Assembly: GCA_900095095.1 (NCBI GenBank)
Contig: FMBT01000332.1
Span: forward strand, 1-64,000
Source: Fragilariopsis cylindrus CCMP1102
Taxonomy: Eukaryota > Bacillariophyta > Bacillariophyceae > Bacillariales > Bacillariaceae
Direction: 5' to 3'
DNA length: 64,000 nucleotides
Of the stretch, positions 37,174 to 64,000 are shown one piece after another. The position numbers and the translations under genes are program-made. A model generated the notes under the pieces. It ran no database searches. It saw only the letters and a program-made list of their open reading frames with translations, and had not been told where the DNA came from. How positions within the stretch are numbered: the stretch's first letter is position 1; each line of letters starts with the position of its first letter.

Positions 37174-37241
37174 AGTACTGTACACAACAAGATACAACTT
37201 ACAACACAAAACGCAAAACTGGCAACTGGCAACTGGCAACG

Positions 37242-39184: not shown

Positions 39185-40627
39185 ATGACAGCCTTGTCCG
39201 CAAAAAATGCGGAAATAACCACAAAAATAGACATCGATGCTATCACCAGTAGTGCCGTTAGTCATGGAAAAGCGCGAAACCGATTATTCATTTTCGCAAA
39301 AGTTACCATGTTTGTTTGTCTTATTATTGGTGTAGTTGCGTACAACACGCCACTTTTTGGTAAAAACATCTACTACGATGCGACTATGACAAGTATTACA
39401 AATGAGGGTCGTGATGAAGCAGTAGCAGCAGCAGATGCTGTTGTTGTAGGAGGTCCTTCTTCTTCTTCTTCTTCCGCTAGTACCACTAGTAGTAACAAAA
39501 GAAAGTTGTCCGGACTGGAACGATTATTAGTATCTGAACCAGACCCCAGTGACGAATCTGCATTAATTGCAAAAATTGCTGAAAAATTAAAACCATCTAC
39601 AATTCGTTTCATTGATGAGGACGAAGAAGACGGAGCAGTAGATACTACTGTTAAGAAGGATGGTGACATTGAAACTATTACCACCACACAAAAGAAACAA
39701 CAACGAACTATTATGGAACCACATCAAGTTTTACATTTGCATCATATGAAAACTGGTGGTACATCAATGGATCACTTACTGCGATGTGCAACGAAACGTT
39801 TAGAGAAGGAAGCTAATTATACTGTTCCGTACTATTCAATTCATGAATGTAGCCGATCCAGATTTGAAACATGTTTATCTCAACAAGATAATGTATGTCG
39901 AACATCTATGGATAAAGCTGCTGTGATGTCCTATTGTAGCGCATTAAAGCATTTAGAGGAATTTGGATGGTGGCACAATAATAATGAAAAACAACATATT
40001 AAAGCATTTACTGTATTACGTAATCCAGTGGATCGGGTTTGGTCAATGTTTCGATTCCAAACAAAGAACTGTTACAAGTGTACACCCCTGAAAGATGTAT
40101 ATAAAGCAATTGATTCTGGCAAGAAAAATTCAGGATTTGATAAACTATGTACAGATCAAATACAGAATCATGAAGTTAATAACTTATTAAGTTCTGAATG
40201 GCCATTAGAAGCATCACAGGTACGTGATGGTGATGATGATGAGGAAACTGCAGTAACACGTAGTGCAATGATTCAAGAGGCCATTAATAATATGAAGGGG
40301 TTCTTTACAGTGATTGGCATCACAGAAGAATTAGATACAACAGCACAATTATTAGGAAAGGTTATGCCATGGATGAGTGATACTATTGATGAAGAATTAT
40401 ATGGTGGGAAAATGAAATCAACATGTTCCTTGGCACATGCCAATGCATCTCCAAAAAATAATCGTTGTGGTAAAGATGGTAAATCACATTGGGATCTACC
40501 AAAACAACCTGATCAAGAAACATATGATTTAATTGTGAAACATAATTCATTAGATATGGAATTGTATGAAGCAGCTGTCTCCTATTTTGAACTACAAAAA
40601 CGTGCATTAAATTTATTAGATGAATAA
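39185..40627 (+). CDS. Golgi-type sulfotransferase, second in window
   Basis: An intact frame of 480 residues, type II topology. A cytosolic N-terminus (~35) is followed by an anchor (FIFAKVTMFVCLIIGVVAYN) and a low-complexity Ser/Ala/Val stem. The catalytic domain has a P-loop-like PAPS motif (LHHMKTGGTSMDHLL, ~186-200) and a 3'-phosphate motif (VLRNPVDRVWSMFRF, ~276-290). Multiple cysteines between them (ECSRSRFETC, DNVCRTS, KNCYKC) suggest disulfides in the lumen. The HMKTGGTS form is typical of HS2ST/carbohydrate sulfotransferase-type enzymes. It is clearly a different subfamily from the one at 9.5-10.8 kb. The likely role is sulfation of secreted polysaccharides. The acceptor is unknown. 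Confidence 0.78.
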   Translation: MTALSAKNAEITTKIDIDAITSSAVSHGKARNRLFIFAKVTMFVCLIIGVVAYNTPLFGKNIYYDATMTSITNEGRDEAVAAADAVVVGGPSSSSSSASTTSSNKRKLSGLERLLVSEPDPSDESALIAKIAEKLKPSTIRFIDEDEEDGAVDTTVKKDGDIETITTTQKKQQRTIMEPHQVLHLHHMKTGGTSMDHLLRCATKRLEKEANYTVPYYSIHECSRSRFETCLSQQDNVCRTSMDKAAVMSYCSALKHLEEFGWWHNNNEKQHIKAFTVLRNPVDRVWSMFRFQTKNCYKCTPLKDVYKAIDSGKKNSGFDKLCTDQIQNHEVNNLLSSEWPLEASQVRDGDDDEETAVTRSAMIQEAINNMKGFFTVIGITEELDTTAQLLGKVMPWMSDTIDEELYGGKMKSTCSLAHANASPKNNRCGKDGKSHWDLPKQPDQETYDLIVKHNSLDMELYEAAVSYFELQKRALNLLDE

Positions 40628-44503: not shown

Positions 44504-45419
44504 ACATTTTCTTCTTGTAGCTTTTGTCTATTGCTCTTCCTATTCCGTGCATCTACAAAGGATTACAAGCTATGACTTGGCATTGAGAGCTTTTTGGAAA
44601 ATATCCTCATTTATTGTATTGTGTGCACAGAAGAAGAATACAGACACAGCTCTTCGTGACAGGCTTCTTTTGACCCACTGGGTGATCCAATACAACACAA
44701 AATCAACCCAAAGGTTTTTTTGTCTCTTTTTGTTCTGGTTTTACCTTAAATAAGATTGTTTTTGATGGCATCATGTGCAACTCTGCCTCTCAAAATGTCT
44801 GTATTCATTTTCCGTAATGTGGGATACATTATTTAATCCTGCGCAAATCATGATTGTTCAAAGAATGGAAAATAAAATCTAGTACTGTCCGGGACAGAAT
44901 AAAAGAGTGATAGGGCTTACTGTAATTTTCAGCTGTAATAACGTCTGAAATTGCATGAAACTACATGCACGAGCTTAATGCAAACACACAATTTATGTAG
45001 TAGATATAAATTACTTAAAATTACCATGATTAATGCTCAACTTGTAGGCCTTTCTGTTAGTAGGCCAGTCGTGTACAAAACTACAGCATCAAAAGGGGGT
45101 AGTTATATAGCATAGTTCACCCCGACAGCTTGGAAACCCATGATAAGATTACTAAACAAGCCATTATTTCAACTTGTTTTCTTAAACAAGTTGAACTTAC
45201 AGTACGTTGACAAATTCAATTTGTTTGAAGGGGGAGGGAATATTTAAAGATTGTTAGTCCCCCTTTATAACTTTGATTAGTTTTGTCCTCGTTTTCGACT
45301 GTTTTTTTGACGTCTTTTTTCATTCGTGTAATAAGTCTAGCAAATAAATCTAAAAAGTAAAAGAAAGAATTCTTTTAATCATTCAACATTCAACATTCAA
45401 CATTCAACTCAAATCGACG

Positions 45420-47228
45420 ATGATGGCGGGGTGGTTCGAGGATGTGTTTTTGACGACGATGGGTGTTTATACTACTACTACTACTACTACTACTACTAAT
45501 AGAATAGTACAACGCAGACTGTTACGTTTCTATCATCGGCAACAACTCCTAATAGTAGTAGCAGTACTGATAATCATAGTTCTACTACTAGCACTAGTTG
45601 TTGTTTCCGGTCAGGATACGGGAAAAACGAACGATCACAGCGGCAACAGCGACAGCGACGGCGATAACAATAATATTTTGCAGTGGCAACGATGTTCTGT
45701 ATTTATAGCACCATCTTTACCTATGACAACTGACAATGACACTAACAATACTAAATTTAATTTTAATTGGGGTGTCTACGCCAATCGAAAATTTTCCAAA
45801 GGTGACATTGTGGATATCTCACCACTCACATTGCCAGTACCGGATGGGTCGAATACCATCGAAAGATCAGTACTGAATGATTATGTTTACGGGTATTGGA
45901 GAGTAGTATTCCAACCACCGAATGCGAAGGCGAATACGAATACGAAGAATAATAAGAATAATAAACGACGTCCTTCCATTGATAAATTGTATAGTGTCTT
46001 ATTCGGACCAGATATGTTTTACAATCATCATCCCACTACACCAAATGTAGAATTTACGACATTTGGACGTGAACCGGATCTGAGTAGTAGTAGTATTTCA
46101 TTGAAGAATGCTATGAATATACAAGGATTTGTGGCTCTTCGTACTATTGAACGTGGAGAAGAATTATTTACCAGTTATAATGGGAAAGAAGATGGTGGTG
46201 CGGCATGGTTTCAACGTCGTGGTCTGAAAATGGTCACACCACCAGAATCAAAATCAAAATCACTCTCCACATTTTTTGATTTGTATTCCAATCAATATTG
46301 TTCCAAGATATATGCTGGTGTGGGTAGACCATCCTGGGAAGATCGATTATTGCCCATATTACCACCAAAACAAAATTATAATCTGCCCTTCTCGATAGAG
46401 GATATACAATTACCAAAGTTCGATGCTGGATTATGGGATGCCAAAACAAAAATTAATAATATTAAACAAGGGGATCGATTAGAAATATCCACGGCACTTG
46501 TGTTATCCTTGGAATTCACCAGGAAGACCTCTCTGATGCCATTAGTCTATACCTGGCAGGACTTACACCAGGAACATCGTTCCGCATTGCAACGTTTAGC
46601 ACATCCTGATGATAATAATAATGATCATAATGAATTACGATTACAATACCAAGGACCTGATACAAATTGGATGCCCATGAATAACTTTACAACAAGAACA
46701 ACAGGAACAGGAGCTGGAGCAATACCGAATTACGACGATTTAGTGTTATTCCCAGTGGCGGGTAATATAGGGATGGTACGGCGTCGACGAACTGTAGCTG
46801 AGAAGCCTAATTGCCGATTAGTTGTTCATCCCGTGGACAACAACAACAACAACAATGATGATGTTGATGATGATGATGACTACAATAACTACAATAATAA
46901 TAATAATAATCCTTCCTCATTGTTAGAACATCCAGTGGGTGTCACAATTGAATTGATTGCAATGGAAGATATTAGGATGGCTGGTACAGATTTAATTGTG
47001 GATGTCTATGAATCGGTGGCAACACCATTCGAGTATCAATTATTATATCGTGAATTAAAATTAACTGGACAGCCCTACAATAAACAAATATTCCAACATC
47101 GTCGGCGGCAGAAGCAACAACAACAGCAACAACAGCACCAACAACAACGTAATAATAAACGTACATCTACATCACCATCTACATCATCATCATCATCAAC
47201 GACGATACCAGCTAAAGAGGAACTATAG
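45420..47228 (+). CDS. SET-domain-like protein with membrane anchor
   Basis: An intact frame of 602 residues. The N-terminus has a Thr run (actact repeats) and an anchor (LLIVVAVLIIIVLLLALVVV), so the bulk is probably lumenal or extracellular. SET features are WGVYANRKFSKGDIVDISPL (~115-135), YSVLFGPDMFYNHHPTTPNV (~190-210, which carries the NHxxxPN motif) and FVALRTIERGEELFTSYNGK (~238-258). A second similar half follows, with CRLVVHP and HPVGVTIELIAMEDIRMAGT then DLIVDV near 460-535. Asn/Asp and Gln runs are conspicuous. Diatom genomes encode many SET proteins with signal or anchor sequences whose substrates are unknown. It is only distantly similar to the SET protein at 5.4 kb. Confidence 0.7.
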   Translation: MMAGWFEDVFLTTMGVYTTTTTTTTTNRIVQRRLLRFYHRQQLLIVVAVLIIIVLLLALVVVSGQDTGKTNDHSGNSDSDGDNNNILQWQRCSVFIAPSLPMTTDNDTNNTKFNFNWGVYANRKFSKGDIVDISPLTLPVPDGSNTIERSVLNDYVYGYWRVVFQPPNAKANTNTKNNKNNKRRPSIDKLYSVLFGPDMFYNHHPTTPNVEFTTFGREPDLSSSSISLKNAMNIQGFVALRTIERGEELFTSYNGKEDGGAAWFQRRGLKMVTPPESKSKSLSTFFDLYSNQYCSKIYAGVGRPSWEDRLLPILPPKQNYNLPFSIEDIQLPKFDAGLWDAKTKINNIKQGDRLEISTALVLSLEFTRKTSLMPLVYTWQDLHQEHRSALQRLAHPDDNNNDHNELRLQYQGPDTNWMPMNNFTTRTTGTGAGAIPNYDDLVLFPVAGNIGMVRRRRTVAEKPNCRLVVHPVDNNNNNNDDVDDDDDYNNYNNNNNNPSSLLEHPVGVTIELIAMEDIRMAGTDLIVDVYESVATPFEYQLLYRELKLTGQPYNKQIFQHRRRQKQQQQQQQHQQQRNNKRTSTSPSTSSSSSTTIPAKEEL

Positions 47229-48022
47229 TTGCCGTTACAACTATGCCACTACTACTACGTGTACTACTGCACGTGTACTACTACAGCTACTTTACGTCAC
47301 GGACAACTATTTTTCCTGTTACTATTTTCGTGACACTTTGTAATTTCACCAAACCACACCACATCTCGCAGAGAATCGTCCCGACAATAAAAAATAAAAA
47401 ATCGTTATAGTCAGTGGAACGTATTAGTCCTACTGCTACTTGCTTATATACTACAGTAATTCTAATTACAATTGTGGATGCGACGGCAGAATTCAAAAAA
47501 GCAATGGAGAGCACAGAGTAGATCCAACATAATCCACTCGAATAGTGTAAAATGACATAATATACGAGAGGAATTCAGCGTTTCAATACGGATACAAAAG
47601 CAGTATCAAACAAGACGACATGTCTAATCACTATCAGAAAATTAAAAGGAAAATATCTTCAGGAAATGTAGAATTTTAATTCATTTCTATTTGATTTAAT
47701 ATAGGTTCTCTATATCTACTTTTTCTTTCTTTATTTATCTTTCTACTACCATTTTTTTCTGCTGTACGGATTGCGACTTCGATTGGCAATTATGAACAAC
47801 ACAACTCGTAATAAACAAACAAAGCTTATTAGTATTCTTCTATTCTACCGGGGAAGACGGCAGGATAGTACATGAAAATTGAACGAATTTCTCGTATGTC
47901 CAAGAAAAGCTTCTCGATCGGCTAGGTCCTTACTATGCTAAGATTTCGCCGTGCCAATCATACGGGAACGATCACAGTCTCAAAAGGCACCAGATAAATT
48001 TCAAACATTCTTGCAACCCGAT

Positions 48023-48056
<34 letters not shown>

Positions 48057-48549
48057 ACTATAAACCCGATAATTGTTCAAAGTTCCCCCCATTTCAACTA
48101 TCAATATCAATGTCATATAGAACAAAATAACCGAGCTCGATGGATGAGTTACGGTGCTATCAAACAGTAAGTCATCGTCAAGAGCCGTATCCCCGTATCC
48201 CCGTATCGATTTGGTTCGGTGACATACTCTGCTGGTTGTGTCCAATGGAATGACGAAATGCTTCTTGAGATTCACGAGAGCTAATCCTTTACTCCGTGTC
48301 TTTTCCCCGGTCTTCGAGGTAGTATTCTCCTACTTTTTTGACGAGAGAAATCATTATCCTGTTGAATCAATGCATCGCTATGCTAAAAATTGTTGGGACT
48401 TTGATTCTGTCTCTTTTTTAAAAATTTCGTAAAATAGCTGCTGTTGCCGCCTAGTCTGCCGTGGTGGGTAGAATGCAATAGTAGATAAGAAGTCATATTA
48501 TATTACGTTATGTTATGTTATGTTATGTTATACTACACTATACTACACA
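47229..48549. other. Intergenic spacer
   Basis: About 1.3 kb with no gene. It contains a TA dinucleotide run at 48029-48056 and short ttatg repeats near 48500-48530. Confidence 0.5.
48029..48056. repeat. TA dinucleotide microsatellite
   Basis: About fourteen TA units. Confidence 0.9.
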
Positions 48550-48885
48550 TTGATAGCTATTGTGGATGTTGCTGTTATTGTTTGGTACCCAAAACCGCAA
48601 GATATTTGGTAGTCTTCAAAGCTATCTGTTCCGACCGCTTTGGCGGTCGCTGTTGCAGTTGCTGTTGCGGTTGCTATGGCACATGCCCATACGTCCGGTG
48701 CTGCGTAGGCTGTTGCGGTCGCTGTTGCAAAAAGCCAAGGCTAATCCTAAGCGAGATAATAAACCGGTCACTGTTGCTGTCGCTGTCGCTGTCGCTGTTG
48801 CTGTTGGTGTATTGCGTAAAGGCGCTATTACTGTAAATCTTTCTGTGGATGATGATGTTGAAAAGAGTTCGGGTGAAGCACTCGA
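48550..48885 (-). pseudogene. Coding-like Ala/Thr sequence beyond the giant gene's stop
   Basis: Past the stop at 48886-48888 the same frame continues with Ser/Thr-rich sequence and a TATATATATATVTG stretch (about 48770-48810). After a shift, another frame reads ATATATAYAAPDVWACAIAT then ATATATATAKAVGTDSFEDY to a stop near 48550. The composition and ACAxATAT motif match the domain upstream of the stop. So the gene once extended further, or an intron or frameshift is missed here. Confidence 0.45.
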
Positions 48886-50103
48886 TTAAACATATAACGA
48901 TGACGTTGACGTTACCGCTGCTGTTGCTGTTGCTGTTGCGGTTGCATTTTCAGTCGCTGTTACGCATTCTTTAACGAAGAGTGTTTCTACCCCTCCTCCT
49001 GGTCCTGATGCAGTCGCTGTTGCCGTCGCGAATGCGCACGCTGTTTCGCCTGCTAATGCGGTTACTGTTGCTGTTGATATTGCCGTTGCTTTCATGGTTG
49101 CTGTACATGTTGATACTGATATTGCGGTCGCTGGATTGGGTGTTATTGCTAACCTTATTTCGGTCGCTGATGCTATCGATGTTGCTGTTGCAATCGCTGT
49201 TGGGGTCAATGATGCTGTAGCTGTCGATGTTGCTGACGCAGCTGCGGTCCCTGATTCAGTCGCCATAGCTATTGCGTTCGCTTCTTCAGCCGCTGTTGCG
49301 GTCACTGTTGAGCTGGATGTCCCAGATGCAGCTGCAGACGCTATTACGGTCGTTGATATCGCCGATGTTCCGGTTGCTGTTCCCGTTGCTATATCGCTCC
49401 CTACTGCAGTTGCATTCACAAATTCGGTCCCTGTTGCGGTCGCTGCTGCGGTCCCAGTTCCGGGCGATAAAGCTACTGCAGTTGCCATCGCTGCTGTAGT
49501 CCCTGTTGCGGTCGATGTTGCGGTCGCTGTTGTGATCCCATCTGCGATCGCTATTGCGTTCGCAATAAAAGGGTTTGTTGCTGTCGATGTTGCGGTCGCT
49601 ATGTCGGTTGATATTGCATGTGCGGATGCTAATTCGGCCGCTGTTGCAGTCGCTTCTGCTCCTGCACTCCCATCTTCAGCCGCGGATGCTATTGCAGTTG
49701 CGAACGCTGTTTCACCCGCTGTTGCAGTCACTGTTGCGGTCGATATTGTATCCGCTGTCGCAGACGATAATGCTGTCGCTGTTTTGACATCTGTTGCGGT
49801 TGCTGTTGCGGTTGCTGTCTCGATCGCTGTTGCACATGATACAGCTTCATTGGTCCCTGTTGATGTTGCAGTCGCTGCCAAAATTCCAGTTGCAGTTGCT
49901 CTACCAATTTCGGTCGATGTTGCTGTAGCTGTTGCGGTCCCTGCAATCGTAAAAATCGCCGATGCGCACGCTGATTCGGTTCCTGTTGCGGTCGCTGTTG
50001 CGAGTGATATTGAGCACGCTAATACTTGTGTTGAGGTAGTAACTGCTAGGGTCGCTGTATCGGGCGCTAGACACGATGAACATCCAGCTCCACACGTTGC
50101 CCC
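48886..50103 (-). other. Ala/Thr-alternating domain, copy 1 (C-terminal)
   Basis: About 400 residues. It starts with a Cys cluster (LGATCGAGCSSCLAPDTATL). A long series of alternating Ala/Thr strands follows (ATATATSTEIG, ETATATATATDV) in turns of roughly 20-25 residues. It ends with a KECVTATEN motif. Alternation of small and beta-prone residues with regular turns suggests a beta-solenoid. A homologous domain lies at 54.05-55.2 kb. Confidence 0.6.
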
Positions 50104-53100
50104 TAAATCTGTGGCAGGATCCGAACTGGGAGATGAACTCGGTGCACCACTCAGATCAGAGCTAGGGAAAAGACTAGGAACTGAACTTGGTGAAATACTA
50201 GGCCTCAAACTCGGTCTGGAACTAGGAGCAGTACTTGGGCCAGAACTTGGGCCAGAACTTGGGACAGAACTTGGAACAGAACTCGGTGCTCCGCTCGGAT
50301 CCAGACTAGGAGCAGAGCTAGAAGAAGCACTCGGATCAACACTCGGTGCTGCGCTTGGATCCACACTAGGATCCAAACTAGGAACCTCACTGGGAGCAAG
50401 GCTAGGGGTAGCGCTTAAGATAGGAGCCATTGTGGGAGCATCCGTTTCAGTGAACCTACTGGGACAAAAAATTGCGGCTTCTGCAGGAGTATCTTCTTGA
50501 ATGGTGCCGTCGCATGGTTCATTGCAGGAATCTTCCGTCACGCACGCACCGGCTGCCAAAACCATAGAAGAACACTTGCAAGAGTTTTTGCCGGTGCAAC
50601 TACCGGCTGCAGAGGAGAAAGTAGATTTGGTTCCCCAACATGAACCCTCGCCAGTACAAGCACCAGCAGCGATGACACCACCAGCCTTGTAGCAGGAACC
50701 CTCGCCAGTACAAGAAGCAGCACCAATGCCACCAGTAGCCCTGTAGCAGGCTCCTTTCTTGGTGCAAGAACCGGCGCCAATGGAACCTTCCATCACTCCA
50801 ACACAGGCATCCTCGCCAAGACATGAACTAGTCCCAACCAAGATGGCTAAACAATGGCAGTTTGTGCCTGGACCAATGCAACTTATGGCCCAATACTAGC
50901 AGTAGTTCCAAGGTTTCTACAGGGGTCAGCACCATTGCATGAACCGGCTCCGATTGTGCCTGCGACTCTCCACAGGGTGAGTCTCCAGATGATAGGCCAA
51001 TACAACTGCCGGCTCCGATGGTTGCAAGAGCACCAATACAAGCGCTTTCACCAAGGCAAGCACCTGCACCAATAGCAGCAGCAGCAGCATGTTGGCAGGC
51101 GTTTTCACCAAGGCAAGAACTTGCGCCAATTGAAGCAGCAGGCATATGTTGGCAGGCGTTTCCACCAACACAGGAGTCGGCCCCAATGAGGCCATTCGAA
51201 AATCACAGGCATTCACACCAATGCAACTATTTGCGCCAATGGTTGCAGTAGAGCAGAAGCAGGAATCATCTACTCCACAGGCACTGACACCAATAGTAGC
51301 AACTCCAACACTATTGCATACAAGAACATCAGTCTTATCAGCCTTAGATGGCGACAAACTAGGTGAGGAACTTGGACCTCCACTTGGACTTGCTGAGGGC
51401 ATGTAACTTGGGCCTCCACTTGGACTTGCAGAAGGTGAAGCACTTGGTGATCCGCTTCGAGTTGGTCTTGGGCTTGCAGAAGGTGATGCACTTGGTGATC
51501 TGCTTCGAGTAGGAGACATGGTGGGAGCATCCGTTTCAGTGAACCTACTGGGACAAAAAATTGCGGCTTCTGCAGGAGTATCTTCTTGAATGGTGCCGTC
51601 GCATGGTTCATTGCAGGAATCTTCCGTCACGCACGCACCGGCTGCCAAAACCATAGAAGAACACTTGCAAGAGTTTTTGCCGGTGCAACTACCGGCTGCA
51701 GAGGAGAAAGTAGATTTGGTTCCCCAACATGAACCCTCGCCAGTACAAGCACCAGCAGCGATGACACCACCAGCCTTGTAGCAGGAACCCTCGCCGTACA
51801 AGAAGCAGCACCAATGCCACCAGTAGCCCTGTAGCAGGCTCCTTTCTTGGTGCAAGAACCGGCGCCAATGGAACCTTCCATCACTCCAACACAGGCATCC
51901 TCGCCAAGACATGAACTAGTCCCAACCAAGATGGCTAAACAATGGCAGTTTGTGCCTGGACCAATGCAACTTATGGCGCCAATACTAGCAGTAGTTCCAA
52001 GGTTTCTACAGGGGTCAGCACCATTGCACGAACCGGCTCCGATTGTGCCTGCCGACTCTCCACAGGGTGAGTCGCCAGATGATAGGCCAATACAACTGCC
52101 GGCTCCGATGGTTGCAAGAGCACCAATACAAGCGCTTTCACCAAGGCAAGCACCTGCACCAATAGCAGCAGCAGCAGCATGTTGGCAGGCGTTTTCACCA
52201 AGGCAAGAACTTGCGCCAATTGAAGCAGCAGGCATATGTTGGCAGGCGTTTCCACCAACACAAGAGTCGGCCCCAATGAGGCCATTCGAGAAATCACAGG
52301 CATTCACACCAATGCAACTATTTGCGCCAATGGTTGCAGTAGAGCAGAAGCAGGAATCATCTACTCCACAGGCACTGACACCAATAGTAGCAACTCCAAC
52401 ACTATTGCATACAAGAACATCAGCCTTAGCAGCATTGACTTCACTAGGTGATCCACTCAGCGCTGAGCTTGGTGATGATGAAGGCTTGCTGCTTGGTGAA
52501 TTGGAAGGACTACTAGATGGCGACAAACTAGGTGAGGAATTTGGACCTCCACTTGGACTTGCTGAGGGCATGTAACTTGGACCTCCACCTGGACTTGTAG
52601 AAGGCGAAGCACAAGCACAATCACACATTGGTGAAGGTTTTGGGTTTGCAGAAGGTGGTGCACTTGGTGATCCGCTTCGAGTTGAAGAAGGTGAGAAACT
52701 GGGTCCACCACTTGGTCCAACACTTGGAGCAGAACTTAAGATAGGAGCCATGGTGGGAGCAACGGTTTCAGTGAACCTACTGGGACAAAAAATTGCGGCT
52801 TCTGCAGGAGTATCTTCTTGAATGGTGCCGTCGCATGGTTCATTGCAGGAATCTTCCGTCACGCACGCACCGGCTGCCAAAACCATAGAAGAACACTTGC
52901 AAGAGTTTTTGCCGGTGCAACTACCGGCTGCAGAGGAGAAAGTAGATTTGGTTCCCCAACATGAACCCTCGCCAGTACAAGCACCAGCAGCAATGACACC
53001 ACCAGCCTTGTAGCAGGAACCCTCGCCAGTACAAGAAGCAGCACCAATGCCACCAGTAGCCCTGTAGCAGGCTCCTTTCTTGGTGCAAGAACCAGCGCCA

Positions 53101-56100
53101 ATGGAACCTTCCATCACTCCAACACAGGCATCCTTGCCAAGACATGAACTAGTCCCAACCAAGATGGCTAAACAATGGCAGTTTGTGCCTGGACCAATGC
53201 AACTTATGGCACCAATACTAGCAGTAGTTCCAAGGTTTCTACAGGGGTCAGCACCATTGCACGAACCGGCTCCGATTGTGCCTGCCGACTCTCCACAGGG
53301 TGAGTCGCCAGATGATAGGCCAATACAACTGCCGGCTCCGATGGTTGCAAGAGCACCAATACAAGCGCTTTCACCAAGGCAAGCACCTGCACCAATAGCA
53401 GCAGCAGCAGCATGTTGGCAGGCGTTTTCACCAAGGCAAGAACTTGCGCCAATTGAAGCAGCAGGCATATGTTGGCAGGCGTTTCCACCAACACAGGAGT
53501 CGGCCCCAATGAGGCCATTCGAAAAATCACAGGCATTCACACCAATGCAACTATTTGCGCCAATGGTTGCAGTAGAGCAGAAGCAGGAATCATCTACTCC
53601 ACAGGCACTGACACCAATAGTAGCAACTCCAACACTATTGCATACAAGAACATCAGCCTTAGCAGCATTGACTTCACTAGGTGATAGACTCAGCGCTGAG
53701 CTTGGTGATGATGAAAGCTTGCTGCTGGGTGAATCCAAAGGACTACTAGATGGCGACAAACTAGGTGAGGAATTTGGACCTCCACTTGGACTTGCTGAGG
53801 GCATGTAACTTGGACCTCCACCTGGACTTGCAGAAGGTGAAGCACAATCACAATCACACACAGAAGGTGAGCACTTGGTGATCCGCTTCGAGTTGAAGAA
53901 GGTGAGAAACTGGGTCCACCACTTGGTCCACCACTTGGAGCAGAGCTTATACTTGGCTGCCCACTTGGAATTGAAGATGCAGTAGGAGCAGAACTTAGAC
54001 TTGGTGCGGCACTTGGAACAGAAGATGATTCCGGAATATCACACTGTATATCGTCCCCGGCACCTGTTGCTGTCGATGTTGCTATTGCTAATGCTGTTAC
54101 TGTTGCCGTTGCTTCTTCAGTTGCTGTGACACATTCTTCGATAGAGACTGTTTCAACAACTCCTCCAGGTTCTGATGCGGTTGCTGTTGCTGTCGCATAT
54201 GCGCACGCTGATTTGCCCGCTAATGCGGTTACTGTTGATGTGGCAAATGCGCATGCTTTCATGGTCGCTGTTGCTGTTGCTGTTGATACTGCGGTTGCTG
54301 GATCGACTTCTCCCCCTATCCTTGATTCAGTCGCTGATGCTATCGCTGTTGCTATTGCGGTTGCAGATTTTGACTGTGCCGCTGTCGCTGTTGCTGTTGA
54401 TGTTGCTGTTGCTGAAGCCATCCCTGTTTCAATCGCTTTTGCTACTGCGGTTGCTGCTTTAGCCGCTGTGGCGGTCACTGTCGCAGTTGCTGTTCCAGGT
54501 GCGGTTGCGGTCGCTGTTACGGTTGTTGATGTGGACGATGTTGCAGTACCTGTTGCAGTGGCTATTTGGGTCGCTATTGCGGTTATTATTGATGATTCGA
54601 TCGCCGTTGCAGTCGCTACTGCGGTCCCTGTTACGCCAGCCAACGCTATTGCAGTTGCGGTTGCTACAGGCGCTGTTGCAGTCACTGTTGCAGTCGCAGT
54701 TTCGCCCCCATCTGCGCTTGCTAATGCAACTGTTGAAACGGTATCTGTTGCTGTTGCTGTTGAGGTTGCTCTTTCAGTTGATATTGAAGTTGCGGACACA
54801 GCTTTGGTAGCTGTTGCGGTCGCATCTGCGGTGGCTATTTTACCCGGATCCGCTGAAGCAGTTGCTAATGCAGTCGCACTTAGGATATCTGTAGCAGTTG
54901 CAGTAGCCGTTGCTGTTTCAACCGCTGTTGAGCAGGCAGTTGCAGAGTCGGTCCCTGTTGCAGTAGAAGTTGCGGCAAGAATTCCAGTGGCAGTTGCGAA
55001 CCCAATTTCAATCGCTGTTGTAGTCGCTGTTGCTGTTCCAGCAATTGTTCCCACCGCTGTTGAGCAGGCTGTTAAGGTCCCTGTTGAAGTCGCTGTTGCA
55101 AGGGCTGTTGCACATGCTTCAGGAAGGGTTGTGACTTGTGTTGGAAGAAGTACTGTTCCAGGCGAGGATGTGCAAGTAGAACATGCAACCCCACAAGTAG
55201 CGATAGGTGAAAGACTAGGAACAGAACTTGGTGAAAGACTGGGACCTGCACTTGGGTCAAGACTTGGAACAGAACTCGGAAGAGAACTTGGTGAAAGACT
55301 GGGCCCGAAGCTTGGTCTGGAACTAGGAGCAGTACTTGGGCCAGCACTTTGGACAGAACTCGGTGCGCCGCTCGGATCCAGACTAGGAGCAGAGCTAGGA
55401 GAAGCACTCGGATCAACACTCGGTGCTGCGCTTGGATCTGCACTAGGATCAGAACTAGGAACCTCACTGGGAGCAAGGCTAGGGGCAGCGCTCGGATCAA
55501 GACTTGGGATGGAACTGGGTGCAGCACTTGGCAATACACTTGGTTCCAAACTGGGCAAGCTACTTGGTGAAAGACTGGGACCTGCGCTTGGGTCAAGACT
55601 TGGAGCAGAACTGGGGTCAAGACTTGGAGCAGAACTAGGACCACCACTTGGAAGACCGCTCGGATCAGAACTAGGACCACCACTTGGAACTACACTTGGA
55701 AGACCGCTCGGATCAGAACTAGGACCACCACTTGGAACTACACTTGGAAGAGAGCTGGGCAAATTACTTGGCTCCCCGCTCGGATTAGCACTCGGAATGG
55801 CACTCGGAATGGAACTTGGAATGGAGCTGGGGTCCAAACTAGGGACAGAACTCGGTGCACCACTCGGATCAGAGCTAGGTGAAAGACTAGGAACAGAACT
55901 TGGTGAAAGACTGGGACCTGCACTTGGGTCAAGACTTGGAACAGAACTCGGAAGAGAACTTGGTGAAAGACTGGGCCCGAAGCTTGGTCTGGAACTAGGA
56001 GCAGTACTTGGGTCAGCACTTGGGACAGAACTCGGTGCGCCGCTCGGATCCAGACTAGGAGCAGAGCTAGGAGAAGCACTCGGATCAACACTCGGTGCTG

Positions 56101-59100
56101 CGCTTGGATCCGCACTAGGATCAGAACTAGGAACCTCACTGGGAGCAAGGCTAGGGGCAGCGCTCGGATCAAGACTTGGGATGGAACTGGGTGCAGCACT
56201 TGGCAATACACTTGGTTCCAAACTGGGCAAGCTACTTGGTGAAAGACTGGGACCTGCGCTTGGGTCAAGACTTGGAGCAGAACTGGGGTCAAGACTTGGA
56301 GCAGAACTAGGACCACCACTTGGAAGACCGCTCGGATCAGAACTAGGACCACCACTTGGAACTACACTTGGAAGACCGCTCGGATCAGAACTAGGACCAC
56401 CACTTGGAACTACACTTGGAAGAGAGCTGGGCAAATTACTTGGCTCCCCGCTCGGATTAGCACTCGGAATGGCACTCGGAATGGAACTTGGAATGGAGCT
56501 GGGGTCCAAACTAGGGACAGAACTCGGTGCACCACTCGGATCAGAGCTAGGTGAAAGACTAGGAACAGAACTTGGTGAAAGACTGGGACCTGCACTTGGG
56601 TCAAGACTTGGAACAGAACTCGGAAGAGAACTTGGTGAAAGACTGGGCCGAAGCTGGTCTGGAACTAGGAGCAGTACTTGGGCCAGCCTTGGGACAGAAC
56701 TCGGTGCGCGCTCGGATCCAGACTAGGAGCAGAGCTAGGAGAAGCACTCGGATCAACACTCGGTGCTGCGCTTGGATCTGCACTAGGATCAGAACTAGGA
56801 ACCTCACTGGGAGCAAGGCTAGGGGCAGCGCTCGGATCAAGACTTGGGATGGAACTGGGTGCAGCACTTGGCAATACACTTGGTTCCAAACTGGGCAAGC
56901 TACTTGGTGAAAGACTGGGACCTGCGCTTGGGTCAAGACTTGGAGCAGAACTGGGGTCAAGACTTGGAGCAGAACTAGGACCACCACTTGGAAGACCGCT
57001 CGGATCAGAACTAGGACCACCACTTGGAACTACACTTGGAAGACCGCTCGGATCAGAACTAGGACCACCACTTGGAACTACACTTGGAAGAGAGCTGGGC
57101 AAATTACTTGGCTCCCCGCTGGATTAGCACTCGGAATGGCACTCGGAATGGAACTTGGAATGGAGCTGGGGTCCAAACTAGGGACAGAACTCGGTGCACC
57201 ACTCGGATCAGAGCTAGGTGAAAGACTAGGAACAGAACTTGGTGAAAGACTGGGACCTGCACTTGGGTCAAGACTTGGAACAGAACTCGGAAGAGAACTT
57301 GGTGAAAGACTGGGCCCGAAGCTCGGTCTGGAACTAGGAGCAGTACTTGGGCCAGCACTTGGGACAGAACTCGGTGCGCGCTCGGATCCAGACTAGGAGC
57401 AGAGCTAGGAGAAGCACTCGGATCAACACTCGGTGCTGCGCTTGGATCTGCACTAGGATCAGAACTAGGAACCTCACTGGGAGCAAGGCTAGGGGCAGCG
57501 CTCGGATCAAGACTTGGGATGGAACTGGGTGCAGCACTTGGCAATACACTTGGTTCCAAACTGGGCAAGCTACTTGGTGAAAGACTGGGACCTGCGCTTG
57601 GGTCAAGACTTGGAGCAGAACTGGGGTCAAGACTTGGAGCAGAACTAGGACCACCACTTGGAAGACCGCTCGGATCAGAACTAGGACCACCACTTGGAAC
57701 TACACTTGGAAGACCGCTCGGATCAGAACTAGGACCACCACTTGGAACTACACTTGGAAGAGAGCTGGGCAAATTACTTGGCTCCCCGCTCGGATTAGCA
57801 CTCGGAATGGCACTCGGAATGGAACTTGGAATGGAGCTGGGGTCCAAACTAGGGACAGAACTCGGTGCACCACTCGGATCAGAGCTAGGTGAAAGACTAG
57901 GAACAGAACTTGGTGAAAGACTGGGACCTGCACTTGGGTCAAGACTTGGAACAGAACTCGGAAGAGAACTTGGTGAAAGACTGGGCCCGAAGCTCGGTCT
58001 GGAACTAGGAGCAGTACTTGGGCCAGCACTTGGGACAGAACTCGGTGCGTCGCTCGGATCCAGACTAGGAGCAGAGCTAGGAGAAGCACTCGGATCAACA
58101 CTCGGTGCTGCGCTTGGATCCGCACTAGGATCAGAACTAGGAACCTCACTGGGAGCAAGGCTAGGGGCAGCGCTCGGATCAAGACTTGGGATGGAACTGG
58201 GTGCAGCACTTGGCAATACACTTGGTTCCAAACTGGGCAAGCTACTTGGTGAAAGACTGGGACCTGCGCTTGGGTCAAGACTTGGAGCAGAACTGGGGTC
58301 AAGACTTGGAGCAGAACTAGGACCACCACTTGGAAGACCGCTCGGATCAGAACTAGGACCACCACTTGGAACTACACTTGGAAGACCGCTCGGATCAGAA
58401 CTAGGACCACCACTTGGAACTACACTTGGAAGAGAGCTGGGCAAATTACTTGGCTCCCCGCTCGGATTAGCACTCGGAATGGCACTCGGAATGGAACTTG
58501 GAATGGAGCTGGGGTCCAAACTAGGGACAGAACTCGGTGCACCACTCGGATCAGAGCTAGGTGAAAGACTAGGAACAGAACTTGGTGAAAGACTGGGACC
58601 TGCACTTGGGTCAAGACTTGGAACAGAACTCGGAAGAGAACTTGGTGAAAGACTGGGCCCGAAGCTTGGTCTGGAACTAGGAGCAGTACTTGGGCCAGCA
58701 CTTGGGACAGAACTCGGTGCGTCGCTCGGATCCAGACTAGGAGCAGAGCTAGGAGAAGCACTCGGATCAACACTCGGTGCTGCGCTTGGATCCGCACTAG
58801 GATCAGAACTAGGAACCTCACTGGGAGCAAGGCTAGGGGCAGCGCTCGGATCAAGACTTGGGATGGAACTGGGTGCAGCACTTGGCAATACACTTGGTTC
58901 CAAACTGGGCAAGCTACTTGGTGAAAGACTGGGACCTGCGCTTGGGTCAAGACTTGGAGCAGAACTGGGGTCAAGACTTGGAGCAGAACTAGGACCACCA
59001 CTTGGAAGACCGCTCGGATCAGAACTAGGACCACCACTTGGAACTACACTTGGAAGACCGCTCGGATCAGAACTAGGACCACCACTTGGAACTACACTTG

Positions 59101-62100
59101 GAAGAGAGCTGGGCAAATTACTTGGCTCCCCGCTCGGATTAGCACTCGGAATGGCACTCGGAATGGAACTTGGAATGGAGCTGGGGTCCAAACTAGGGAC
59201 AGAACTCGGTGCACCACTCGGATCAGAGCTAGGTGAAAGACTAGGAACAGAACTTGGTGAAAGACTGGGACCTGCACTTGGGTCAAGACTTGGAACAGAA
59301 CTCGGAAGAGAACTTGGTGAAAGACTGGGCCCGAAGCTTGGTCTGGAACTAGGAGCAGTACTTGGGCCAGCACTTGGGACAGAACTCGGTGCGTCGCTCG
59401 GATCCAGACTAGGAGCAGAGCTAGGAGAAGCACTCGGATCAACACTCGGTGCTGCGCTTGGATCCGCACTAGGATCAGAACTAGGAACCTCACTGGGAGC
59501 AAGGCTAGGGGCAGCGCTCGGATCAAGACTTGGGATGGAACTGGGTGCAGCACTTGGCAATACACTTGGTTCCAAACTGGGCAAGCTACTTGGTGAAAGA
59601 CTGGGACCTGCGCTTGGGTCAAGACTTGGAGCAGAACTGGGGTCAAGACTTGGAGCAGAACTAGGACCACCACTTGGAAGACCGCTCGGATCAGAACTAG
59701 GACCACCACTTGGAACTACACTTGGAAGACCGCTCGGATCAGAACTAGGACCACCACTTGGAACTACACTTGGAAGAGAGCTGGGCAAATTACTTGGCTC
59801 CCCGCTCGGATTAGCACTCGGAATGGCACTCGGAATGGAACTTGGAATGGAGCTGGGGTCCAAACTAGGGACAGAACTCGGTGCACCACTCGGATCAGAG
59901 CTAGGTGAAAGACTAGGAACAGAACTTGGTGAAAGACTGGGACCTGCACTTGGGTCAAGACTTGGAACAGAACTCGGAAGAGAACTTGGTGAAAGACTGG
60001 GCCCGAAGCTTGGTCTGGAACTAGGAGCAGTACTTGGGCCAGCACTTGGGACAGAACTCGGTGCGTCGCTCGGATCCAGACTAGGAGCAGAGCTAGGAGA
60101 AGCACTCGGATCAACACTCGGTGCTGCGCTTGGATCCGCACTAGGATCAGAACTAGGAACCTCACTGGGAGCAAGGCTAGGGGCAGCGCTCGGATCAAGA
60201 CTTGGGATGGAACTGGGTGCAGCACTTGGCAATACACTTGGTTCCAAACTGGGCAAGCTACTTGGTGAAAGACTGGGACCTGCGCTTGGGTCAAGACTTG
60301 GAGCAGAACTGGGGTCAAGACTTGGAGCAGAACTAGGACCACCACTTGGAAGACCGCTCGGATCAGAACTAGGACCACCACTTGGAACTACACTTGGAAG
60401 ACCGCTCGGATCAGAACTAGGACCACCACTTGGAACTACACTTGGAAGAGAGCTGGGCAAATTACTTGGCTCCCCGCTCGGATTAGCACTCGGAATGGCA
60501 CTCGGAATGGAACTTGGAATGGAGCTGGGGTCCAAACTAGGGACAGAACTCGGTGCACCACTCGGATCAGAGCTAGGTGAAAGACTAGGAACAGAACTTG
60601 GTGAAAGACTGGGACCTGCACTTGGGTCAAGACTTGGAACAGAACTCGGAAGAGAACTTGGTGAAAGACTGGGCCCGAAGCTTGGTCTGGAACTAGGAGC
60701 AGTACTTGGGCCAGCACTTGGGACAGAACTCGGTGCGCCGCTCGGATCCAGACTAGGAGCAGAGCTAGGAGAAGCACTCGGATCAACACTCGGTGCTGCG
60801 CTTGGATCCGCACTAGGATCAGAACTAGGAACCTCACTGGGAGCAAGGCTAGGGGCAGCGCTCGGATCAAGACTTGGGATGGAACTGGGTGCAGCACTTG
60901 GCAATACACTTGGTTCCAAACTGGGCAAGCTACTTGGTGAAAGACTGGGACCTGCGCTTGGGTCAAGACTTGGAGCAGAACTGGGGTCAAGACTTGGAGC
61001 AGAACTAGGACCACCACTTGGAAGACCGCTCGGATCAGAACTAGGACCACCACTTGGAACTACACTTGGAAGACCGCTCGGATCAGAACTAGGACCACCA
61101 CTTGGAACTACACTTGGAAGAGAGCTGGGCAAATTACTTGGCTCCCCGCTCGGATTAGCACTCGGAATGGCACTCGGAATGGAACTTGGAATGGAGCTGG
61201 GGTCCAAACTAGGGACAGAACTCGGTGCACCACTCGGATCAGAGCTAGGTGAAAGACTAGGAACAGAACTTGGTGAAAGACTGGGACCTGCACTTGGGTC
61301 AAGACTTGGAACAGAACTCGGAAGAGAACTTGGTGAAAGACTGGGCCCGAAGCTTGGTCTGGAACTAGGAGCAGTACTTGGGCCAGCACTTGGGACAGAA
61401 CTCGGTGCGCCGCTCGGATCCAGACTAGGAGCAGAGCTAGGAGAAGCACTCGGATCAACACTCGGTGCTGCGCTTGGATCCGCACTAGGATCAGAACTAG
61501 GAACCTCACTGGGAGCAAGGCTAGGGGCAGCGCTCGGATCAAGACTTGGGATGGAACTGGGTGCAGCACTTGGCAATACACTTGGTTCCAAACTGGGCAA
61601 GCTACTTGGTGAAAGACTGGGACCTGCGCTTGGGTCAAGACTTGGAGCAGAACTGGGGTCAAGACTTGGAGCAGAACTAGGACCACCACTTGGAAGACCG
61701 CTCGGATCAGAACTAGGACCACCACTTGGAACTACACTTGGAAGACCGCTCGGATCAGAACTAGGACCACCACTTGGAACTACACTTGGAAGAGAGCTGG
61801 GCAAATTACTTGGCTCCCCGCTCGGATTAGCACTCGGAATGGCACTCGGAATGGAACTTGGAATGGAGCTGGGGTCCAAACTAGGGACAGAACTCGGTGC
61901 ACCACTCGGATCAGAGCTAGGTGAAAGACTAGGAACAGAACTTGGTGAAAGACTGGGACCTGCACTTGGGTCAAGACTTGGAACAGAACTCGGAAGAGAA
62001 CTTGGTGAAAGACTGGGCCCGAAGCTTGGTCTGGAACTAGGAGCAGTACTTGGGCCAGCACTTGGGACAGAACTCGGTGCGCCGCTCGGATCCAGACTAG

Positions 62101-64000
62101 GAGCAGAGCTAGGAGAAGCACTCGGATCAACACTCGGTGCTGCGCTTGGATCCGCACTAGGATCAGAACTAGGAACCTCACTGGGAGCAAGGCTAGGGGC
62201 AGCGCTCGGATCAAGACTTGGGATGGAACTGGGTGCAGCACTTGGCAATACACTTGGTTCCAAACTGGGCAAGCTACTTGGTGAAAGACTGGGACCTGCG
62301 CTTGGGTCAAGACTTGGAGCAGAACTGGGGTCAAGACTTGGAGCAGAACTAGGACCACCACTTGGAAGACCGCTCGGATCAGAACTAGGACCACCACTTG
62401 GAACTACACTTGGAAGACCGCTCGGATCAGAACTAGGACCACCACTTGGAACTACACTTGGAAGAGAGCTGGGCAAATTACTTGGCTCCCCGCTCGGATT
62501 AGCACTCGGAATGGCACTCGGAATGGAACTTGGAATGGAGCTGGGGTCCAAACTAGGGACAGAACTCGGTGCACCACTCGGATCAGAGCTAGGTGAAAGA
62601 CTAGGAACAGAACTTGGTGAAAGACTGGGACCTGCACTTGGGTCAAGACTTGGAACAGAACTCGGAAGAGAACTTGGTGAAAGACTGGGCCCGAAGCTCG
62701 GTCTGGAACTAGGAGCAGTACTTGGGCCAGCACTTGGGACAGAACTCGGGTGCGTCGCTCGGATCCAGACTAGGAGCAGAGCTAGGAGAAGCACTCGGAT
62801 CAACACTCGGTGCTGCGCTTGGATCGCACTAGGATCAGAACTAGGAACCTCACTGGGAGCAAGGCTAGGGGCAGCGCTCGGATCAAGACTTGGGATGGAA
62901 CTGGGTGCAGCACTTGGCAATACACTTGGTTCCAAACTGGGCAAGCTACTTGGTGAAAGACTGGGACCTGCGCTTGGGTCAAGACTTGGAGCAGAACTGG
63001 GGTCAAGACTTGGAGCAGAACTAGGACCACCACTTGGAAGACCGCTCGGATCAGAACTAGGACCACCACTTGGAACTACACTTGGAAGACCGCTCGGATC
63101 AGAACTAGGACCACCACTTGGAACTACACTTGGAAGAGAGCTGGGCAAATTACTTGGCTCCCCGCTCGGATTAGCACTCGGAATGGCACTCGGAATGGAA
63201 CTTGGAATGGAGCTGGGGTCCAAACTAGGGACAGAACTCGGTGCACCACTCGGATCAGAGCTAGGTGAAAGACTAGGAACAGAACTTGGTGAAAGACTGG
63301 GACCTGCACTTGGGTCAAGACTTGGAACAGAACTCGGAAGAGAACTTGGTGAAAGACTGGGCCCGAAGCTCGGTCTGGAACTAGGAGCAGTACTTGGGCC
63401 AGCACTTGGGACAGAACTCGGTGCGTCGCTCGGATCCAGACTAGGAGCAGAGCTAGGAGAAGCACTCGGATCAACACTCGGTGCTGCGCTTGGATCTGCA
63501 CTAGGATCAGAACTAGGAACCTCACTGGGAGCAAGGCTAGGGGCAGCGCTCGGATCAAGACTTGGGATGGAACTGGGTGCAGCACTTGGCAATACACTTG
63601 GTTCCAAACTGGGCAAGCTACTTGGTGAAAGACTGGGACCTGCGCTTGGGTCAAGACTTGGAGCAGAACTGGGGTCAAGACTTGGAGCAGAACTAGGACC
63701 ACCACTTGGAAGACCGCTCGGATCAGAACTAGGACCACCACTTGGAACTACACTTGGAAGACCGCTCGGATCAGAACTAGGACCACCACTTGGAACTACA
63801 CTTGGAAGAGAGCTGGGCAAATTACTTGGCTCCCCGCTCGGATTAGCACTCGGAATGGCACTCGGAATGGAACTTGGAATGGAGCTGGGGTCCAAACTAG
63901 GGACAGAACTCGGTGCACCACTCGGATCAGAGCTAGGTGAAAGACTAGGAACAGAACTTGGTGAAAGACTGGGACCTGCACTTGGGTCAAGACTTGGAAC
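48886..64000 (-). CDS. Giant modular extracellular repeat protein, 5' partial, multiple frameshifts
   Basis: A leftward coding region of more than 15 kb that enters from beyond the right edge. From N to C its modules are: a PSxx tandem array (64000 to ~55206), an Ala/Thr-rich domain bounded by cysteines (~55200-54045), a PSxx linker, a Cys-rich IGAxSC module (A), linker, module B, linker, module C, a PSxx block (~50440-50104) and a second Ala/Thr domain ending at the stop 48886. Long open stretches (2263, 939, 744 and 651 codons) are separated by single-base indels at about 56650-57380, 53868, 51795, 51197, 50962 and 50888. Each is visible by comparison with a sister copy. Modularity, cysteine content and PSxx repeats are typical of diatom wall or adhesive proteins. 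No membrane segment is visible. It might be two adjacent genes rather than one. Function is unknown. Confidence 0.6.
50445..51335 (-). repeat. Cys-rich IGAxSC module, copy C
   Basis: About 300 residues of 18-21-residue turns, each with the core IGAxSCxGxxAC. It aligns base for base with copies A and B. Three one-base deletions (near 50888, 50962 and 51197) relative to those copies break its frame locally, and together they restore it. Confidence 0.75.
51530..52440 (-). repeat. Cys-rich IGAxSC module, copy B
   Basis: Nearly identical to copy A, offset by 1232 bp. Turns such as ASIGASSCLGENACQH and AAIGAGACLGESACIG repeat through it. One deleted base near 51795 (cgccgtac versus cgccagtac) shifts the frame. 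Confidence 0.8.
52770..53670 (-). repeat. Cys-rich IGAxSC module, copy A
   Basis: The intact version of the module. It begins VLVCNSVGVATIGVSACGVD, continues with about twelve paired-Cys turns, and ends CNEPCDGTIQEDTPAEAAIF then CPSRFTET. A PSxx linker with SPSxSP and GGPSYMPSASPSGG follows in each copy. Confidence 0.8.
54045..55200 (-). other. Ala/Thr-alternating domain, copy 2
   Basis: About 385 residues. It opens with a Cys cluster (IATCGVACSTCTSSPGTVLL) and closes with an EECVTATEEATATVTA segment, like copy 1. The two copies are diverged at the sequence level but keep Cys positions and the ATATAT strand pattern, unlike the near-identical Cys modules. Confidence 0.6.
55206..64000 (-). repeat. 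672-bp coding tandem array (about 13 copies) of PSxx repeats
   Basis: The marker ggtgaaagactagg recurs at 55206, 55878 and so on. A second marker (gagagctgggcaaattactt) recurs at an exact 672-bp period from about 55750 to 63800. Between 56410 and 57748 the spacing falls 6 bp short. Six single-base deletions found by eye (near 56650, 56655, 56694, 56708, 57119, 57379) account for this. Each unit is 56 tetrapeptides Pro-Ser-x-x (672 = 56 x 12 bp), for example PSSIPSAIPSANPSGEPSNL. Copies differ at only a few sites. The array continues past the right edge. Confidence 0.92.

What the first reader, a model, noticed from the sequence alone, without database searches (positions are those of the whole stretch)
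55206..64000. 672-bp higher-order coding satellite: 56 x PSxx per unit, about 13+ copies
A 12-bp codon-level repeat is organised into an exactly 672-bp higher-order unit, tandemly copied at near identity for at least 8.8 kb inside a reading frame. This is satellite-like architecture in protein-coding DNA, implying ongoing homogenisation or very recent expansion and probably copy-number polymorphism.
Basis: seen in the sequence. Interest (0 to 1): 0.75.

Follow-up and report, generated by a model that had tools for sequence, protein, structure and literature searches.

The report
Giant diatom surface-protein gene repeat
A stretch of diatom DNA contains about 18 near-identical 672-base copies of a coding block that adds a very long proline-serine stalk to a probable cell-surface adhesion protein; it is a striking, recently expanded example of a known kind of coding repeat.

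Summary
On the minus strand of contig C439 a PSxx-coding 12-bp repeat is organised in 672-bp units (56 x 12) from 55206 to about 67475: 13.1 units in the window, 18.3 in all. Units differ by 0.25% on average; the 56 dodecamers within a unit average 60% identity. It lies in a gene on the same strand: hydrophobic N-terminal stretch, Cys domain, two fasciclin domains, second Cys domain, PSxx array, Ala/Thr region, DUF7640 domains. Coding constraint is clear: all four Pro codons are used, Ser is always AGY, and 2 of 65 distinct substitutions in three related loci hit the invariant Pro/Ser bases, 21.7 expected. Derived variants sit in many units and in all combinations, as homogenisation by exchange would give (read). 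The same segment, 2-3% diverged with sharp edges, occurs in three other contexts, one partly in an ice-binding-protein frame, one beside a Helitron. The genome is a diatom's. Copy number is uncertain: the allelic contig ends inside the array. One-base indels look like assembly errors. A new member of a known kind.

The parts
55206..64000 (-). PSxx array, 672-bp units (56 PSxx each), 13.1 units in the window; continues to about 67475 on contig C439 (L009)
58224..58895 (-). reference 672-bp unit used for comparison; the next two anchor-to-anchor units are identical to it
56650..57449 (-). two units (15 and 16) with six one-base deletions that break the frame; probable residual assembly errors
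54040..55200 (-). Ala/Thr-dipeptide region directly C-terminal of the array, same frame
50608..53606 (-). Cys-rich DUF7640 (PF24646) domains in about 1.09-1.23 kb direct duplications, with short PS linkers; frame broken in places
50135..50415 (-). second, short PSxx stretch, 80% identical to the unit
48889..50130 (-). second Ala/Thr-dipeptide region; probable C-terminal part of the gene (exact stop not settled)

Best explanation
The array is part of an exon of one giant gene (about 70.5 to 48.7 kb on C439, minus strand) for a secreted or membrane-anchored diatom surface protein. The PSxx repeat makes a very long, disordered, probably heavily O-glycosylated stalk between an N-terminal fasciclin/Cys head and C-terminal Ala/Thr and Cys-rich DUF7640 modules. 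The 12-bp repeat is old and held by selection on Pro and Ser. The 672-bp unit arose when misaligned 12-bp repeats duplicated a 56-repeat block; any such event gives a multiple of 12 and keeps the frame. That block was then amplified to about 18 copies and is being homogenised by unequal exchange or gene conversion between units. SHOWN: repeat architecture, unit identity, conserved Pro/Ser skeleton, order of the domains on one strand, sharing of the segment between loci. INFERRED: that the exons are joined in one transcript, surface location, glycosylation, adhesive role, the exchange mechanism.
For: Same-strand exons: N-terminal exon with a 19-residue hydrophobic stretch (mean Kyte-Doolittle 2.25) and a Cys domain; exon with two fasciclin domains (E 7e-58); exon with a second Cys domain running into PSxx; both introns have GTAAGAAA donors, the first one's CAG acceptor is, the second one's. 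DUF7640 (E 3e-87) in a 3' frame on the same strand. The N-terminus is shared with two PSxx paralogs, C337 and C807, at 49% and 54% identity. Pro third base CCA/CCC/CCG/CCT 22/9/13/12, Ser AGT/AGC 43/13, no exception at the four invariant bases in 56 dodecamers. In C337, C19 and C425 together 2 of 65 distinct substitutions hit those bases, 21.7 expected, p 2e-9 (2 of 87 if repeated ones are counted). Mean difference 0.25% among 17 units. Sites 102, 173 and 228 each occur in both states in several units, and every pair of them shows all four combinations (read), the sign of exchange between units; 102A is in none of four related loci and 173G in all four. Other PSxx loci have periods of their own, mostly multiples of 12: 156, 324, 144, 564, 348, 612.
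Against: No RNA, protein or raw-read data were available. The assembled frame is broken in several places in the array and in the 3' modules (near 53.87, 51.9-51.6 and 51.2 kb), so a pseudogene is not excluded. C439 and C216 differ by only 4 substitutions in 6.9 kb beside the array, so differences between their arrays may partly be consensus error. Site patterns could in part be repeated mutation. Not all periods are multiples of 12: C608 shows 237/243 (sum 480), and a few others are one base off. The substitutions counted in the related loci are not fully independent, because changes on the C439 side are shared between comparisons; the count of distinct ones reduces this. The stop codon of the gene was not settled.
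Confidence: 0.75

Rival explanations
1. Assembly artefact: the real locus has few units, and the assembler inflated the array (or collapsed a longer one).
For: The array (12.3 kb) is longer than the read N50 of 8.2-8.9 kb given for the long F. cylindrus PacBio library, if this is that assembly (PMC5634323, passages). One-base indels cluster in two units. The second contig ends inside the array.
Against: C439 joins unique sequence on both sides; C216 holds 8 anchors of its own; variant states lie in ordered blocks of 3 to 8 neighbouring units; other loci carry about 1.5 units of the same period.
Confidence: 0.12
2. Recent pseudogene or non-coding satellite: the frame is a relic and the repeat expands without function.
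For: Frame breaks at 64286, 62826, 57379-56650 and in the 3' modules; a missing base at site 173 is shared by two neighbouring units; an antisense frame is also open.
Against: Most indels are single-unit, and those in the arrays of C439 and C216 are at different sites, as errors would be; Pro/Ser bases are conserved in related loci; exons with splice signals lie upstream.
Confidence: 0.12
3. Rolling-circle (Helitron or extrachromosomal circle) amplification made the array and spread the segment.
For: About 1 kb of the same sequence lies in an open frame directly 5' of a Helitron Rep ORF with DUF6570 and Helitron_like_N, a PIF1-like ORF following.
Against: The Helitron Rep part matches at two places in the genome only, which look like alleles; segment edges differ between loci, so there is no fixed mobile unit; ordinary unequal exchange suffices.
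Confidence: 0.08

Closest known systems
Balbiani ring genes of Chironomus (abstract and passages of PMC4192438 seen; hierarchical repeat structure recalled)
   Same: Giant secretory-type protein with tandem coding repeat units; subrepeats inside units (recalled for Balbiani rings)
   Different: Different repeat and organism; PSxx, fasciclin and DUF7640 modules here. No sequence comparison was made
Intragenic tandem repeats of yeast flocculins and other adhesins (PMC3899988, PMC8621652: search listing and start of abstract only)
   Same: Tandem repeat stalk in a surface protein whose copy number can change (recalled for flocculins)
   Different: Two-level repeat with a 56-monomer unit; no evidence here of copy-number or adhesion effects
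PSxx genes elsewhere in this genome: C337, C19, C425, C108/C807
   Same: PSxx arrays; shared N-terminus in C337 and C807; shared 672-type segment in C337, C19 and C425
   Different: Another period (156 bp in C108/C807, about 28-36 copies) or only about 1-1.5 units; another head domain (ice-binding in C19)
NBPF/Olduvai coding higher-order repeats (recalled; one search gave a search listing only)
   Same: Higher-order repeat within coding sequence
   Different: Multi-exon domain triplets in primates (recalled), not a low-complexity stalk in one exon

Membership tests
Higher-order tandem repeat | units far more alike than the monomers within a unit | tested here: met
   units differ 0.25%; 56 monomers average 60% identity, 45 distinct
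Higher-order tandem repeat | head-to-tail copies with constant period | tested here: met
   10 of 12 spacings in the window are 672, the others 668 and 670
Non-coding satellite DNA | no coding constraint | tested here: not met
   2 of 65 distinct substitutions at invariant Pro/Ser bases in three related loci, 21.7 expected
Fasciclin-domain surface protein | FAS1 domains (PF02469) | tested here: met
   two FAS1 stretches in exon 2, E 7e-58
Fasciclin-domain surface protein | FAS1 exon and PSxx exon in one transcript | not testable with these tools
   only splice-site reading, no RNA
Fasciclin-domain surface protein | signal peptide or membrane anchor | tested here: inconclusive
   hydrophobic stretch at residues 52-72 after an acidic N-terminus; no dedicated predictor
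PT disordered repeat (PF04886) | profile match over the cut-off | tested here: met
   275.9 bits, cut-off 26.2, for the stretch L009:230-3787
ShK domain (PF01549), for the two Cys domains | profile match over the cut-off | tested here: not met
   9.5 bits against cut-off 20.9, E 2, for one; no match for the other
Copy-number-variable intragenic repeat | copy number differs between alleles or strains | tested here: inconclusive
   allelic contig C216 ends inside the array

The most novel reading that the evidence does not exclude
PSxx blocks form a genome-wide pool of exchangeable stalk cassettes: the same 672-bp seed, carried as about 1.5 units with sharp edges, has been copied between non-allelic genes with different head domains (fasciclin in C439, ice-binding in C19, an unnamed head in C337) and to a Helitron-linked frame, and was then expanded in one of them.
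Probability: 0.4. Interest if true: 0.6.

Novelty: new member of a known kind. Interest (0 to 1): 0.42.

Why it matters
It gives a clear two-level coding repeat in a diatom in which old selection on Pro/Ser and very recent unit homogenisation can be separated by base position. Variants shared by some units but not others make concerted evolution inside an exon measurable, and strains can be tested for stalk-length variation. The presence of the same segment near an ice-binding domain and beside a Helitron suggests that surface-protein stalks are exchanged between genes.

Tried and rejected
Open reading frames as evidence of coding: rejected, because a unit without stops stays open in any number of copies and the antisense frame is open too. 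The antisense LGxx frame as the coding one: rejected, because base 6 is a pyrimidine in 56 of 56 dodecamers, which Ser AGY requires and which the antisense reading does not require in the 25 of 56 codons that lie in four-fold boxes, and because domain-bearing exons lie on the minus strand.

C216 as a copy-number comparison: rejected, the contig ends in the array; C807 likewise ends in its array, against C108. The 26-base anchor gave 0 exact matches in viral contigs. Relatives outside this genome were otherwise not sought; the other held collections are prokaryote, metagenome, phage and plasmid.

Species name: 27 silicon transporter matches, exons and alleles counted apart (of 14 control genomes one rings, below the cut-off), make it a diatom, and 53 ice-binding matches, pieces included (0 of 14 controls), suggest a cold-adapted one. 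Fragilariopsis cylindrus is my guess (PMC5634323, passages: 745 primary contigs of 59.7 Mb plus 288 alternate of 9.1 Mb; here 818 contigs, 67.9 Mb), but the figures do not match exactly and no marker was compared. A look into the Antarctic Nitzschia paper (PMC13149256) failed on a short search term and was not repeated.

Literature: in the listings (titles and starts of abstracts) I saw no paper on PSxx arrays in diatoms; these are word searches of open-licence papers only, and none of those papers was read for it. Structure prediction was not used.

Choices in counts: in the diversity figure the variant table was typed by hand, deletions at variant sites (unit 7 site 102, units 15 and 16 site 173, unit 16 site 228) were counted as the reference base, and the two partial end units were left out. 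A first count of 2 of 87 substitutions included repeats of one change in both part-units and in several loci; one search recounts distinct ones as 2 of 65.

Full report
WHAT IS THERE. The window is the first 64000 bases of contig C439 (323283 bases) of a 67.9-Mb, 818-contig genome. Silicon transporter matches (27) make it a diatom; 53 matches to the ice-binding family suggest a cold-adapted one, and the size is near that of the Fragilariopsis cylindrus PacBio assembly (passages of PMC5634323), though not equal. From 55206 a PSxx-coding repeat on the minus strand runs to the window's end and on to about 67475. A 26-base anchor gives spacings of 672 in 10 of 12 cases in the window, and alignment to a cyclic unit gives 18.26 units in all.

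TWO LEVELS. A unit is 56 dodecamers, 45 distinct, with an average pairwise identity of 60%. Whole units are nearly identical: 17 complete units differ by 0.25% on average. Three sites (102, 173, 228) vary by substitution in more than one unit; three more substitutions are singletons (319, 200, 191). The rest are one-base indels; all but one are confined to single units, the exception being a missing base at site 173 in two neighbouring units. Indel sites in the arrays of the two haplotype contigs do not coincide, so I read them mainly as residual assembly errors.

THE 12-BP LEVEL IS OLD AND SELECTED. In 56 of 56 dodecamers the Pro and Ser codons keep their first two bases, while the Pro third base takes all four letters (22/9/13/12) and the Ser third base only T or C (43/13). 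In the related segments of C337, C19 and C425 together, 2 of 65 distinct substitutions fall on the four invariant bases (21.7 expected, p 2e-9); in the Helitron-side segment of C531 3 of 17 distinct ones do (3 of 20 uncorrected, p 0.06), so constraint is not shown there. The other bases change freely: 10 of 26 substitutions are synonymous in C337, 9 of 20 in C531, 11 of 26 in C19 and 14 of 35 in C425, where 25% of possible changes are synonymous. So Pro-Ser every four residues is what matters.

THE 672-BP LEVEL IS RECENT AND PROBABLY STILL MOVING. 102A is in none of four related loci, 173G in all four and 228G in three. In C439, 102A is in 9 of 18 units (8 with G, 1 gapped), 173A in 11 of 19 (6 G, 2 gapped) and 228A in 8 of 19 (10 G, 1 gapped); in C216, in 1, 2 and 2 of 8 units (all read). 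Each pair of sites shows all four combinations in C439. This is what exchange between units gives. The two contigs are nearly identical next to the array (4 substitutions in 6.9 kb, 48300-55205) but differ by 2.5% just beyond it (80 substitutions in 3210 aligned bases, 45073-48299). Part of the array difference may be consensus error.

THE GENE. Upstream on the same strand (C439 numbering): exon 1, 70483 to about 68870, with an acidic N-terminus, a hydrophobic stretch, Lys/Ser/Gly-rich repeats, a PT-rich part and a Cys domain; exon 2, about 68848 to 67907, with two fasciclin domains; exon 3 from about 67787, with a second Cys domain and then the array. The two introns have the same donor, GTAAGAAA, and exons 1 and 2 both end in the residues IPEG. 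Downstream come an Ala/Thr-dipeptide region, then DUF7640 domains in 1.09-1.23 kb direct duplications, a short second PSxx stretch and a second Ala/Thr region to about 48.9 kb. If the frame is whole, the protein has some 7000 residues (inferred from coordinates). The assembled frame is not whole.

RELATIVES IN THE SAME GENOME. The unit search reported 240 matches; the rows listed, cut off, lie on 31 contigs, alleles included, and only 38 of 174 candidates were scored. Identity profiles in 96-base windows show the 672-type segment at 92-100% over about 1 kb in C337 and at 96-100% beside a Helitron Rep in C531 (probable allele C478), and in C19 mostly at 95-100% with windows down to 70% at internal indels; outside, identity falls to the 49-79% of any two PSxx stretches, or to unrelated DNA beside the Helitron. 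Substitutions amount to 2.5%, 2.0% and 2.7%; C425 has 5.7% over 611 bases. In C19 the frame that holds the latter part of the segment continues into an ice-binding domain (E 4e-57). In C531 the frame continues into DUF6570 and a Helitron_like_N domain; that Rep part has two matches in the genome, C531 and C478. Other arrays have other periods: 156 bp over 4.5 kb in C807 and 5.5 kb in C108, and 324, 144, 564, 348, 612 and 300 elsewhere, mostly multiples of 12 (nine loci examined, of which C807 and C108 may be alleles). Reading side by side, nine contigs (C439, C631, C425, C131, C303, C614, C144, C587, C52) have the Cys domain just on the N-terminal side of a PSxx array on the same strand; in C31 and C617 it is on the C-terminal side and in C464 on the other strand. 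Both lists were cut off.

HOW IT MOST LIKELY WORKS. PSxx is a disordered stalk (it matches the PT disordered repeat profile), likely glycosylated on Ser and perhaps hydroxylated on Pro (inferred), which holds fasciclin and Cys-rich modules apart at the cell surface. A repeat of 12 bases lets misaligned strands or chromatids pair in any register of 12, so duplications keep the frame without selection for length; once a 672-bp duplication existed, it was the longest and best match and so drove further rounds (inferred). That would explain why different loci have different periods, why most are multiples of 12 and why units are uniform. The segment shared between loci calls for copying between non-allelic genes, probably ectopic gene conversion, of a stretch that already carried about 1.5 units (inferred).

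VERDICT. It belongs with known coding tandem repeats of giant secreted or adhesive proteins; what is less usual is the clean two-level structure and the sharing of one segment between genes with different heads. Stalk-length polymorphism remains open.

Noticed in passing
L012:5979-9170 (C531) and L014 (C478): About 1 kb of PSxx of the 672 type (one 48-bp deletion) lies in an open frame directly upstream of a Helitron Rep ORF that has only these two, probably allelic, matches in the genome.
   Followed up: partly
L016:4422-6638 (C19): PSxx array and an ice-binding domain (PF11999) in one open frame.
   Followed up: partly
L017 and L018 (C807, C108): A PSxx higher-order array with another unit, 156 bp (13 PSxx), 4.5-5.5 kb long, in a gene with an N-terminus like that of the window's gene.
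   Followed up: partly
G000:C108:21262-29551: Fasciclin domains recur at about 1090-bp spacing, a tandem array, followed on the same coding strand by a PSxx stretch.
   Followed up: no
window 37155-38495, 39185-40627 and 9455-10606: A 2OG-Fe(II) oxygenase (the superfamily of prolyl hydroxylases) and two sulfotransferase-like ORFs on the same contig as the Pro-rich gene.
   Followed up: no
G000:C307:566304-567440 and C146:25025-26158: DUF7640 and ice-binding matches lie next to each other on one strand at two loci.
   Followed up: no
L014:3256-4115 and the matching part of C531: A short-period tandem repeat whose translation is rich in Cys, Val, Tyr, Leu and Thr, present in both probable alleles of the Helitron locus.
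   Followed up: no
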